A stretch of 21,347 nt of DNA, from positions 1-21,347 of IMG/VR virus record IMGVR_UViG_3300010885_051816; one strand, given 5' to 3'. Position 1 is the stretch's first letter. The number at the start of each line of letters is the position of its first letter. The notes under the pieces were generated by a model. It was not told where the DNA came from. It ran no database searches and saw nothing but the letters and a program-made list of their open reading frames with translations. A program made the position numbers and the translations under genes. Below are positions 14,556 to 18,708 of this stretch, piece after piece. The stretch is from a virus.

Positions 14556-16091
14556 TTATTCACCTTCTAAGTTTTGCGGTCCACGCGTAACTTTCCCAGA
14601 TCCACTGGGTACGGAAGTTGAATTATTACTATCTGTTTCAATCTTTGTCAACTCATTTTCTACATCATTTATATTATATTTATCCGCGATTATGTTTAAA
14701 GCGCTTTCTTTGCTAATTATTTCTGCGCCAACGTAATTTTGAAGAGCTTGGGCTTCTTGAAGATCATCTTGAGGCGTAGGCGGGTACCAATCTGGCCACT
14801 CCAAACTTACATCCTCAATAAAAATATTTGCTAACTTATTATTTCCACTTATGTCGTCTGTTTTTAGCTTATACTTTCCGCTCCTTGCTATATCAAAGAT
14901 CATACCTAATATTCTTTTTAGCCCATTCTCTCCATAAAATAGACGCATTTCCCCGACAAGTCCGATCAAGTTTGAATTCAACATTTGAAGCGCTTTCCCT
15001 GAATGAATCGCGCTGATTTTATCTGGATTTGCTCTATTCCCACGCACAACTTCCAGCGCAAATTCTCTCAAACAACGTATATAGTTGATGACCGCTTCTG
15101 ATATTTTCCCATCCATTTCTAAGTAAAAAGCGTCTCCATTTTCTCCTAAGTCCATTGTCTGTCCTTTTATTATTTCTTTATTTTGCATCTGAGATGGATC
15201 TTTTACTACCAACGTCGGATCAGAATTATATCTCAGCAGCCTACCTAGTTGGCTCAACTGGTAATCAATTTCAATGCAAATATCGACAATATTTTCAAAT
15301 ATGCACTCGCCGTCTATTTTCTGGTCGTCTTCTGTGTTTTTTATCCAAACTGCTGGGGCAAACCCAAAATCATGAATACAGCTTCTTTTTTTATCTATCT
15401 TTGGCTTGAATGAATCTTTATTTTGTTTTTCTTCTTCCTCGCTGTATGGAAGATAATAAATTTCTTCTGTTTCATTCCATTCGCGTTCCAAATAGAAAAA
15501 TTTATTTTTATCTTCTTCGCTTATAGAATACCCTTTCGATATAAGTACTTCCGCTCTTGTTTTTATTTTTTCCGTTAGCTTTATTAGTTTGCTTGGCTCT
15601 TGAAAATCAAAAATAGGTGTCAGATGGATTGTATCCAAAACATCTAAATAAAATTTCCCATTCAGAACTTTAATTAGAATGCAAACGCTCCCTATTGCTC
15701 CTTTCTTTGCAGCTAAAAGCATTTTGCTTTTTATGTTGCACTCATTCGTTATTTTTTGTAGCTCTCTTGTTTCTTCTTGGCATTTACCCCTTATAAAAGG
15801 AAAATGCCCTTCTCCAAATAACATTGCTACGGACTCGTTCACGATTATTTTTGGAATTCCATAAATTACGCCAGGTCTTCTTTTCATTAATGGAACATAA
15901 CTATCAGAGTCTTCATTTCCTGAGTACTCCGAAAACCACGGTGCGAGGTTATCGTAGATTGTTCCGTTATATATTTTTTTTAAAATTGATAAATGCTGCT
16001 CTCTGTAAGAGCAATTTCTATCGACGTCTAAACCAAACCTGCTTGACATCCTATCAACAAATGTCATTTCGCGTTGCGCCATAAAATTCAT
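14556..16091 (-). CDS. Portal protein
   Basis: I start at ATG 16091 (511 aa): AGGAAG lies six bases upstream and the ATG forms an ATGA overlap with the preceding stop; a GTG at 16100 lacks this. The protein resembles SPP1-type portals: N-terminal YNGTIYDNLAPWFSEY, PGVIYGIPKIIVNESVAMLF followed by GEG, a middle acidic insertion (about 205-240), FGFAPAVWIKNTEDD, ECIFENIVDICIEIDYQLSQ, and the stem-helix region ISAIHSGKALQMLNSNLIGL. The tail has PDWYPPTPQDDLQEAQAL and a C-terminal helix with ISKESALNIIADKYNI. Portals form the dodecameric DNA channel and bind the terminase. Length and position between terminase and scaffold agree. Confidence 0.88.
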   Translation of the reverse strand: MNFMAQREMTFVDRMSSRFGLDVDRNCSYREQHLSILKKIYNGTIYDNLAPWFSEYSGNEDSDSYVPLMKRRPGVIYGIPKIIVNESVAMLFGEGHFPFIRGKCQEETRELQKITNECNIKSKMLLAAKKGAIGSVCILIKVLNGKFYLDVLDTIHLTPIFDFQEPSKLIKLTEKIKTRAEVLISKGYSISEEDKNKFFYLEREWNETEEIYYLPYSEEEEKQNKDSFKPKIDKKRSCIHDFGFAPAVWIKNTEDDQKIDGECIFENIVDICIEIDYQLSQLGRLLRYNSDPTLVVKDPSQMQNKEIIKGQTMDLGENGDAFYLEMDGKISEAVINYIRCLREFALEVVRGNRANPDKISAIHSGKALQMLNSNLIGLVGEMRLFYGENGLKRILGMIFDIARSGKYKLKTDDISGNNKLANIFIEDVSLEWPDWYPPTPQDDLQEAQALQNYVGAEIISKESALNIIADKYNINDVENELTKIETDSNNSTSVPSGSGKVTRGPQNLEGE

Positions 16092-16312
16092 TTTTTGCAC
16101 TTCCTAGTAAAATTAAAGTTATCATGCTCACGCCCATCTTTTTTCAATTTCTTTTTATTTCTTCTTTTGTTCTCCCACTCAACCATGTACTTCTCAGCAT
16201 CAAAAATATTTTCTTTTATTGCTTTTAATCCCGGCTTATTAAAATCATCAATTTCATTCCACTCTAGAAATTCTTGTACGGCCTCCCTGTATGAAAAATC
16301 ATCATATTTCAT
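16088..16312 (-). CDS. Small hypothetical protein upstream of the portal gene
   Basis: A 74-aa reading frame from ATG 16312 ends at 16088, overlapping the portal ATG as ATGA. The product starts MKYDDFSYREAVQEFLEWNE and turns strongly basic toward the end (ENKRRNKKKLKKDGREHDNF), so it might bind nucleic acid, but no fold is recognised. The RBS is weak. The tight coupling to the portal and the spacing from the previous gene (16 bases) support a real gene. Confidence 0.62.
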   Translation of the reverse strand: MKYDDFSYREAVQEFLEWNEIDDFNKPGLKAIKENIFDAEKYMVEWENKRRNKKKLKKDGREHDNFNFTRKCKK

Positions 16313-16328
16313 TTTACCGATCTCATTT

Positions 16329-16712
16329 TTATCTGTATTTGATATATGGGTTAAATAATTGGTTATTTTGATTCGAATTTTCTAGAATCCATTTTTTTTT
16401 AAACTCTATCATGTCTTGCAGTTTTCCTCTCCCTAGTTCCACGCTGTCTTCTCTTGGCTCGTTTGTGTTTGGATATTCATTGGACAATAAACGGTATTGA
16501 TCTGATGACCCAATTTGCTGATAACAAAATTGGAGATCTCCATCTTTGTAAGAACTTTCCTTATTTCCCATAGTTTTCAATATGTTTTCAATGCCTAGAT
16601 CTTTTTTCATTAAGATATTTTTTTCAGGCCCGATTTTTGATTGCAACTCTGCCATTATCCTATCTTTTTTTATAACGTTTTTTAGTTTTTCTATTGTTTC
16701 AATCTTTGTCAT
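16329..16712 (-). CDS. Hypothetical protein between the Hint and portal-side genes
   Basis: The 127-aa product starts at ATG 16712 behind a good RBS (AAGGTAAG, four bases upstream), five bases after the Hint ORF stop. It is polar and mixed in charge: an N-terminal helix MTKIETIEKLKNVIKKDRIM, then MKKDLGIENILKTMGNKESS and DGDLQFCYQQIGSSDQYRLL, with a Trp and Asn/Gln-rich C-terminus. No domain, signal peptide or membrane segment is visible. It is not a recognisable prohead protease. Genes in this place between terminase and portal are often accessory. Function unknown. Confidence 0.68.
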   Translation of the reverse strand: MTKIETIEKLKNVIKKDRIMAELQSKIGPEKNILMKKDLGIENILKTMGNKESSYKDGDLQFCYQQIGSSDQYRLLSNEYPNTNEPREDSVELGRGKLQDMIEFKKKWILENSNQNNQLFNPYIKYR

Positions 16713-16717
16713 TTTTC

Positions 16718-17191
16718 TTACCTTTCAATCAGTCTGGTTCGGCAATTGTTTACCAATATCCCATTAGCAATGTAATTATCACTATCCGCCACTTCGATGT
16801 TATAAACAAACCTTCTTCCATCAATTATCTTTATGTCTTTAATAAAGACACCATTTCCATTCATGCTCATCAAAATATCACCAACAATCAAATCTTTTGC
16901 ATTGCAATATCCATTTCTGCTTAAACAGAAAACAGGGTAGTCCCCTGTTATAAATATTTTATCCAAATCTTCCCCTGCTTCAATGCAAAAGATATTGCTT
17001 ACTTCTTTTTCATGCCAGTCTACCACTCGTTTTAACTCAAACTTCTTTCTAGAATTGTTAAAACATAATATGCAGGCGTTTGACTTATTTTGTACTATAT
17101 CTTTTAATTTTATATTTCCATATTCTAGTTCTAAAATAGTCTCTCCACCCAAGAACGTTTTTAACTCTATTTCATTTTCCATGTTTGTCAT
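16718..17191 (-). CDS. Stand-alone Hint (intein-like) domain protein with altered splice residues
   Basis: The 157-aa product is almost entirely a Hint domain, the fold of inteins and hedgehog C-domains. Block A is TFLGGETILELEYGNIKLKD (from T12), block B is IFITGDYPVFCLSRNGYCNA followed by KDLIVGDIL (80-107), and the C-terminal block is YNIEVADSDNYIANGILVNN followed by Cys150. The usual Cys1 is Thr12, the TxxH histidine is Tyr85, and the penultimate His is Asn148; the terminal Asn149 and the +1 Cys150 are kept, followed by RTRLIER. From T12 to N149 it is 138 aa, the size of a mini-intein with no homing endonuclease. The start overlaps the terminase stop (ATGA). Full splicing looks unlikely; Asn cleavage may remain possible. 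Function unknown. Confidence 0.82.
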   Translation of the reverse strand: MTNMENEIELKTFLGGETILELEYGNIKLKDIVQNKSNACILCFNNSRKKFELKRVVDWHEKEVSNIFCIEAGEDLDKIFITGDYPVFCLSRNGYCNAKDLIVGDILMSMNGNGVFIKDIKIIDGRRFVYNIEVADSDNYIANGILVNNCRTRLIER

Positions 17192-18708
17192 CTTTCCATC
17201 ATGTTATGCCTGTAAACGTGCTGTCTTGTTTCATGTTTCATAAATAATTCATTTAGCGCTTGGCTCATGCTGTCCACTTGGTCATCATTCCGCGCGTTGG
17301 GGAACATGCATACCTCGTCAATAAAGTCTCGGCAAAAAGATTCATCTTCAGGAATAAACACTCGCCCACTTTCTATAAATCCTGAAACAGCGCTAAGCCT
17401 GCTAGTTTTATCACCCAAACATTTCACTTCAACTATTGGTAGTCTTGTTTCAGCCTTTAAAGTCTGAATCAAGCTATGCCCGGATGCTTTTTTCTCTATT
17501 ATAATTTTGTTTGGGTTAAACTCTGCCGCCAACATTTTTGATCTACGACATAGTTCTGGAAAAGAAATTTTTCCCTTAAATATGTTTAAGAGATATGCGC
17601 CTGAGTTGTTGTATCCCCAGGTTGTACATACGCTGTAGTCATTTTCTTTCCCTTCTTCAAAGGCGGTATCCCATGACTGGATTATTAAAATAAATTCCGG
17701 GTTTATAATAGATCTATCGTATTGGTTCTTTATTATTTTGTATGATTTAAACCAATCTGATTTAATAATTCCTCCATCCCTTGGTGCGGGTCTTTGTTGT
17801 AGCTGACCAGCTGCCGCATAGCTTCCCATATCTGATTTAAGCTTTCCTAGCTCTTCTTTACCGTATCTTTCTGGCCATAAGCATTCCCCTTCTACTTTTC
17901 TAGGGTCTGTAAAACCTATGGATGTTTTAAATATTTTCCCTTCATACTCAGCGGGAAGACATAAATGTTCGTAACCTCCTTTTTCTAGAATATGGCCAGA
18001 CAAATCGTTTTCGTGGACCCTTTGCATGACGATAACCCTTGCAAAAGTATTTGGGTTATTCCCACGGGTAGACATTGCCTCAGACCACCATGTCAACGTA
18101 TGTTGCCTAATGGCTTCGCTTTCTGCTTCTTGAACGTTATGCGGATCGTCGCATACTATTCTATCGCCTCCTTCTCCCGTTCCAATTCCACGGACAGACG
18201 TAGCAATTCGATAACCTAAGTGGTTATTGTCAAATCGAGTTTTTGCGGATTGATCTGAAGTTAACCTGAATCGGTGGCCGTACTTTTTTTTAAAATAGGG
18301 GTGAAGAATTAGCCGGCGACATTTTAAACTATCGCGGGTTGAAAGGGTTTGACCATAAGATGCAAAAATCCATTTGATGGTTGGGTTTCTAACCCATTCC
18401 CACATTGGCCAAAATACGCTAACTAATAAGCTTTTAGCGTGCCTTGGCGGCATGTTTATGAGTAAATTCCTGATTTGAAGCTTTGTAACTGCTTCTAGGT
18501 GATCGCAGATAGCATCTATATGCCATCCGGGTACAAACACATTGCCGGGTTCGACGATGTGCCACATATCTTTTACAAAATCTATTAGCTTGAGTTCTTC
18601 AATCTCTATCAGACTCGAATAATACTGTATTTGTTCGCGTTCGTGCTGAGTCAAGGATGGCCACGATTTTATCAAGCGGATTTTGGTCGTTTCTTTCAAT
18701 TCGGTCAT
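17188..18708 (-). CDS. terL: Terminase large subunit
   Basis: The 506-aa protein is the packaging motor. Residues 85-95 (NMPPRHAKSLL) are the Walker A type motif PPRHAKS; GGDRIVCDDPHN (about 180-191) is Walker B with the acidic pair D187/D188; RVIVMQRVHENDLSG (about 223-238) is a coupling motif. The C-terminal RNase H-like nuclease shows ILIIQSWDTAF with D347, KIIIEKKASGH with E405, and NARNDDQVDS with D475, D476 and D479. All catalytic residues I looked for are present, so it should be active. ATG 18708 lies 110 bases inside the small-subunit gene; no later Met before the ATPase fits. It acts with the portal on procapsids. Confidence 0.96.
   Translation of the reverse strand: MTELKETTKIRLIKSWPSLTQHEREQIQYYSSLIEIEELKLIDFVKDMWHIVEPGNVFVPGWHIDAICDHLEAVTKLQIRNLLINMPPRHAKSLLVSVFWPMWEWVRNPTIKWIFASYGQTLSTRDSLKCRRLILHPYFKKKYGHRFRLTSDQSAKTRFDNNHLGYRIATSVRGIGTGEGGDRIVCDDPHNVQEAESEAIRQHTLTWWSEAMSTRGNNPNTFARVIVMQRVHENDLSGHILEKGGYEHLCLPAEYEGKIFKTSIGFTDPRKVEGECLWPERYGKEELGKLKSDMGSYAAAGQLQQRPAPRDGGIIKSDWFKSYKIIKNQYDRSIINPEFILIIQSWDTAFEEGKENDYSVCTTWGYNNSGAYLLNIFKGKISFPELCRRSKMLAAEFNPNKIIIEKKASGHSLIQTLKAETRLPIVEVKCLGDKTSRLSAVSGFIESGRVFIPEDESFCRDFIDEVCMFPNARNDDQVDSMSQALNELFMKHETRQHVYRHNMMER

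What the first reader, a model, noticed from the sequence alone, without database searches (positions are those of the whole stretch)
16718..17191. Orphan mini-intein/Hint gene directly after the terminase, with a partly disabled active site
Seen: a 157-aa ORF with the block A, block B and C-terminal blocks of a Hint domain, size of a mini-intein, no homing endonuclease. Cys1 is Thr12, the TxxH His is Tyr85 and the penultimate His is Asn148, while Asn149-Cys150 remain. Known: canonical splicing needs a Cys/Ser nucleophile at position 1; TxxH His and penultimate His help each step; Asn cyclisation alone gives C-terminal cleavage. The WCT set of class 3 inteins was not seen. Inference: it is not a normal splicing intein but keeps an open frame, a coupled start and place in the late operon. 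It could be a C-cleaving or non-catalytic Hint protein co-opted for packaging or head assembly.
Basis: partly seen in the sequence, partly recalled or inferred. Interest (0 to 1): 0.8.

Follow-up and report, generated by a model that had tools for sequence, protein, structure and literature searches.

The report
Orphan, disabled mini-intein in a phage
A bacteriophage carries, between its DNA-packaging gene and its portal gene, a small free-standing gene derived from a self-splicing protein element (intein) that has lost most of its working parts; it is most likely a stranded leftover, like one intein pseudogene already described, although a new use for the folded protein cannot be excluded.

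Summary
Window 17191→16718 (minus strand) encodes a 157-aa protein whose only recognisable content is a complete mini-intein (Hint) splicing domain without an endonuclease. Its start overlaps the terL stop (ATGA). Thr82, Asn149 and Cys+1 (Cys150) remain.

It is an orphan: 11-12 residues before the domain, 8 after. None of 162 neighbour loci (terL relatives, portal relatives, prophages) has a Hint domain. The only other copy is an identical 5.2-kb contig, so selection cannot be measured. By sequence it groups loosely with helicase/ligase/DnaE-type inteins; a tempting origin from intein-bearing MuF head genes was tested and rejected.

Best reading: a decayed, non-splicing orphan intein, matching the published Arthrobacter Arth_1007 intein pseudogene, carried in a low-GC three-gene insert. 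Co-option for packaging or head assembly is not excluded, but nothing positive supports it.

The parts
16718..17191 (-). Orphan Hint (mini-intein) ORF, 157 aa including stop codon coordinates; domain about residues 12/13-149, N-flank MTNMENEIELK(T), C-flank CRTRLIER
   Evidence: Pfam, NCBIfam and PDB sequence matches; alignment; Foldseek of a low-confidence model
17188..18708 (-). terL, intact and uninterrupted; stop codon overlaps the Hint start
   Evidence: phrog_38 9.4e-100, Terminase_6C 4.9e-16, TIGR01630 4.4e-20
16329..16712 (-). 127-aa ORF of unknown function, part of the low-GC insert
   Evidence: no Pfam or PHROG match, no phage match; only the identical contig in viral contigs; GC 31%
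16088..16312 (-). 74-aa ORF of unknown function, part of the low-GC insert
   Evidence: no family match above cut-off; GC 31%
14556..16100 (-). portal gene; usually lies close to terL in relatives
   Evidence: phrog_145 3.8e-11; 33% to Komagataeibacter phage phiKX1 portal; spacing in relatives

Best explanation
The ORF is a decayed orphan mini-intein. A splicing domain of the kind found in DNA-metabolism genes (helicase, ligase, DnaE type) lost its host protein and was stranded, with two other small low-GC genes, between terL and portal of a myovirus whose relatives are prophages of Acetobacteraceae and kin. It is probably still translated, by coupling to terL, as a 157-aa folded protein, but performs no splicing and probably little or no cleavage. 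Shown: intein-only content, minimal flanks, lost catalytic residues, absence from relatives. Inferred: loss of a former host protein, expression, folding, inactivity and lack of function.
For: Only intein similarity in the whole ORF, with flanks of 11-12 and 8 residues. His B:10, the residue conserved in all 39 comparison rows, is Tyr; penultimate and block-F His and Cys1 also gone. Absent from 162 neighbour loci and from terL-portal junctions of relatives, so not needed by this kind of phage. The Hint ORF and its two downstream neighbours are 31-32% GC against 36-42% for portal, terL and MCP, which fits an accessory insert. Close published precedent: Arsp-FB24 Arth_1007, an orphan intein with 52+14 residue flanks and His B:10 replaced, inactive in all tests (PMC3196547).
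Against: Frame intact, start coupled to terL, codon use normal for the phage. Structural core positions kept or changed conservatively. Phages tend to shed useless DNA. One population only, so neutrality is not shown.
Confidence: 0.6

Rival explanations
1. Domesticated Hint protein: the fold is kept, without splicing chemistry, for a structural or regulatory job in packaging, head assembly or host interaction.
For: Intact coupled ORF with phage-like codon use; core positions kept while the most conserved catalytic residue is lost; position in the late operon.
Against: Absent from all relatives examined; no conserved partner; no measured selection; adjacent small ORFs equally unique.
Confidence: 0.17
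2. C-terminal self-cleaving protein: Asn149 cyclises and releases the octapeptide CRTRLIER.
For: Asn149 and Cys150 and the conserved block-G context are kept. Some inteins here have Gly or Ser instead of the penultimate His (L142, L143).
Against: B-block, block-F and penultimate His all missing; Arth_1007 did not cleave; loss of 8 residues has no evident purpose.
Confidence: 0.08
3. Relic of an intein from a MuF head-morphogenesis gene: the tail CRTRLIER would be the end of the MuF domain.
For: Inteins at a MuF site end HPN|CRTRALFTS (L207) or N|CRSRLVP (L224), resembling N|CRTRLIER.
Against: Placing the window domain with 20 MuF-site inteins is rejected (p-AU 0.008). No MuF gene in the window or in its relatives. 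DNA-ligase inteins also end N|CRT.
Confidence: 0.07
4. Still a working intein by an unusual route (Thr1, or direct attack by Cys+1), or part of a trans reaction with a gene outside the window.
For: Thr12 in the Npu register could be a nucleophile; Cys+1 and Asn149 kept. The window is a fragment.
Against: His B:10 is essential in nearly all tested inteins, and class 2 inteins need it too (PMC4031507). No plausible exteins; the Phe13 register removes Thr at position 1.
Confidence: 0.05

Closest known systems
Arsp-FB24 Arth_1007 intein pseudogene (PMC3196547)
   Same: Orphan intein, similarity to inteins only, short flanks without known relatives, His B:10 replaced, annotated phage origin.
   Different: Arth_1007 is a class 3 intein with a homing endonuclease domain, flanks of 52 and 14 residues; this one is endonuclease-free, not class 3, and sits translationally coupled in a phage late operon. 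Inactivity is tested there, inferred here.
Class 1 mini-inteins (Npu DnaE, Spl DnaX)
   Same: Size, blocks A, B, F and G, Thr B:7, C-terminal Asn and Cys+1.
   Different: Cys1, His B:10, block-F and penultimate residues changed; no host protein.
BIL domains (for example 2lwy)
   Same: Hint domain outside a classical host gene; best PDB sequence match.
   Different: BILs lack a Cys/Ser/Thr +1 residue (PMC4031507); here Cys+1 is present. Sequence grouping is with the DNA-metabolism inteins, weakly supported.
Inteins in phage head and packaging genes (terL, MuF)
   Same: Phage late-gene neighbourhood; Hint domains ending N|CR.
   Different: There the intein interrupts terL or MuF; here terL is intact and MuF is absent from the window.

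Membership tests
Hint/intein splicing-domain superfamily | Blocks A, B, F, G recognised by curated profiles | tested here: met
   PT-HINT and intein_Cterm above curated cut-offs; Intein_splicing just below
Hint/intein splicing-domain superfamily | Hint fold | tested here: inconclusive
   Low-confidence model (pLDDT 60.8, then 55.4); Foldseek matches are inteins/Hedgehog/BIL but TM 0.3-0.4
Active class 1 intein | Cys/Ser (or Thr) at position 1 | tested here: inconclusive
   Thr12 in one register, Phe13 in the other
Active class 1 intein | His at B:10 | tested here: not met
   Tyr85; His in all 39 other rows
Active class 1 intein | C-terminal Asn followed by Cys/Ser/Thr | tested here: met
   Asn149-Cys150
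Active class 1 intein | In-frame insertion in a host protein (exteins) | tested here: not met
   11-12 and 8 flanking residues; no other family in the ORF
Class 2 intein | Ala1, Ser G:6, His B:10 | tested here: not met
   Thr/Phe, Asn148, Tyr85
Class 3 intein | Trp B:12, Cys F:4, Thr G:5 | tested here: not met
   Val87, Asn131, Val147 (read)
BIL domain | No nucleophile at +1 | tested here: not met
   Cys150 present
Orphan intein pseudogene (Arth_1007 kind) | Similarity limited to the intein, short unrelated flanks | tested here: met
Orphan intein pseudogene (Arth_1007 kind) | Essential catalytic residues lost | tested here: met
Orphan intein pseudogene (Arth_1007 kind) | No splicing or cleavage in experiment | not testable with these tools
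   needs expression
MuF-site intein | Groups with inteins inserted at the MuF HPN|CR site; MuF N-extein present | tested here: not met
   p-AU 0.008; no MuF found

The most novel reading that the evidence does not exclude
A mini-intein domesticated by a phage: freed from any host protein, stripped of its chemistry and kept as a small folded protein, expressed coupled to the terminase, with a job in packaging, head assembly or host interaction.
Probability: 0.15. Interest if true: 0.65.

Novelty: new member of a known kind. Interest (0 to 1): 0.3.

Why it matters
[quoted passage not shown] Another natural example, endonuclease-free and with an intact frame in a phage operon, helps show what happens to an intein after it loses its host protein. 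If it proved to be kept for a function, it would be a free-living use of the intein fold inside a virus. It also warns that naming it a 'terminase intein' from its neighbourhood would be wrong.

Tried and rejected
Origin from a MuF-gene intein: suggested by the C-terminal tail, rejected by the tree and by the absence of MuF. Origin from a terL intein: terL inteins found here sit at a D(A)|CRYA site with 29-76 (once 11) residues after the intein and group elsewhere in the tree; window terL is uninterrupted. A direct repeat at the terL/Hint and Hint/127-aa-ORF junctions as a trace of insertion: its score ranks third of 253 gene-junction pairs, so shared ribosome-binding and start sequence can explain it. 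Selection test by dN/dS: impossible, the only other copy has no differences in 5222 bp. Exact place in the intein tree: unresolved, long branch, weak supports. Structure model with more rows: lower confidence (pLDDT 55.4). More relatives by portal, 127-aa ORF or Hint single-sequence queries in viral contigs: only the identical contig, plus one intein for the Hint. Plasmid and genome matches were generic Hint domains or inteins. A mixed intein alignment was too diverse for the locus search. Catalytic-versus-core loss was only tabulated, not turned into a significance test, because the reference group is small and diverse.

Full report
What is there. The window is a 21,347-base virus record carrying head and tail genes of a contractile-tailed phage on the minus strand: baseplate, tape measure, sheath, major capsid protein, scaffold, portal and terL, with a probable terS upstream of terL. 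Between terL and portal lie three small ORFs: the 157-aa ORF of the finding (17191 to 16718), a 127-aa ORF and a 74-aa ORF. The first overlaps the terL stop codon by ATGA. GC of the three is 31-32%, against 36% for portal, 41% for terL and 42% for the capsid gene; codon choice of the Hint ORF is like that of the other phage genes.

Is it a Hint domain? Yes. PT-HINT and the intein C-terminal model pass their curated cut-offs, Intein_splicing is just below its cut-off at 3.5e-8, and the best solved relatives are a BIL domain and a DnaX mini-intein. The AlphaFold2 model is of low confidence (pLDDT 60.8, pTM 0.49), yet its first 37 Foldseek matches in the PDB are all inteins, BIL or Hedgehog domains, with TM of only 0.3-0.4. 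So the model agrees with the Hint fold but is not independent proof. There is no endonuclease.

Active site. Thr82 (B:7), Asn149 (G:7) and Cys150 (+1) are kept. His B:10 is Tyr85; it is His in all 39 other rows aligned. Penultimate His is Asn148, block-F His is Asp138, block-F Asp is Asn131. Position 1 is Thr12 in the Npu DnaE register or Phe13 in the register of most viral inteins. Class 2 and class 3 signatures are absent. Many core positions are kept or changed conservatively. These residue roles are taken from PMC4031507 and PMC3196547.

Who else has it. A second contig, IMGVR_UViG_3300009181_003848, is identical over all its 5222 bp. Eighty terL relatives, 52 portal-side loci (phages, viral contigs and bacterial genomes) and 30 further prophage loci hold no Hint domain by a profile search that does recover the window copy and an Acetobacteraceae intein as controls (the profile includes both of these). 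In 36 portal relatives terL is visible on the same fragment, in most of them close to the portal; in Komagataeibacter phage phiKX1 the two are adjacent. Some relatives have other, unrelated inserts there. No full-length relative was found in 398 family-level or 385 class-level genomes, only parts of ordinary inteins and BIL-like proteins. The portal family is common in that bacterial family (168 of 398 genomes), so the phage probably infects Acetobacteraceae or kin.

Where it came from. Two targeted scans of viral contigs gave inteins ending N|CR in terL, MuF and DNA-ligase genes. The tail N|CRTRLIER looks like the MuF set (N|CRTRALFTS, N|CRSRLVP), but the domain itself does not belong there: holding it with 20 MuF-site inteins is rejected (p-AU 0.008), and no MuF gene is present. 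It falls, on a long branch and with weak support, among helicase, ligase, DnaE and DnaX-type inteins; a third scan showed that the EVAD..NY.ANG signature is common in such genes. Its original host protein cannot be named.

How it most likely works. It probably does not splice. The published match is the Arthrobacter FB24 Arth_1007 intein: similarity to inteins only, flanks of 52 and 14 residues, His B:10 replaced, no splicing or cleavage under any condition tested, described as a decayed intein pseudogene. The window ORF meets every feature of that description that sequence can test. What separates it is the lack of an endonuclease, an intact frame coupled to terL, and a well-kept core. Those features leave room for co-option, but a function in packaging or head assembly is hard to square with its absence from every relative examined. 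The steps shown are the domain, the residues, the orphan state and the absence from relatives; translation, folding, inactivity and lack of function are inferred.

Limits. Only one population is known, so selection could not be measured. The window is a fragment, and a related gene elsewhere in the phage genome cannot be excluded. Collection scans used short conserved patterns and miss diverged sequences; the targeted scans were designed for CR-ending and EVAD-type inteins and are not an unbiased census. The plasmid and phage collections gave only generic Hint matches.

Noticed in passing
L207 and L179; also L209, L210/L219, L211/L225, L224, L226, L227, L231: Phage MuF head-morphogenesis genes interrupted by inteins at the HPN|CR site, several apparently split over separate ORFs (MuF with the N-terminal half, then another ORF with the C-terminal half; in L207 the second ORF carries an HNH endonuclease).
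   Followed up: partly
L190, L193, L197, L213, L234, L211, L226: MuF-site inteins whose first residue appears to be Ala rather than Cys/Ser, with Cys+1 present: candidates for a class 2-like or other non-standard start. Register not proven.
   Followed up: partly
L218, L220, L256; L254 (uninterrupted frame): Inteins at the KxDG|CR motif of phage DNA-ligase-like genes, split over two ORFs in L218 and L220.
   Followed up: partly
window 17188-18708: The terL is of a different type from that of the phage's portal relatives (24-28% identity) and nearest to terL of Roseobacter phage CRP-901 and other viral contigs (46-51%), which suggests exchange of the terminase module.
   Followed up: partly
L009/L013 and L054, just after terL: Other phages carry different, unrelated extra ORFs in the same place after terL (160 aa; 210 aa, possibly an oxygenase), so the terL-portal junction tolerates inserts.
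   Followed up: no
L084 2132-4945 (Salicola phage SCTP-2): Mini-intein apparently interrupting a tail collar domain (WAL|CDGSNGTPDLTDR), annotated only as hypothetical protein.
   Followed up: no
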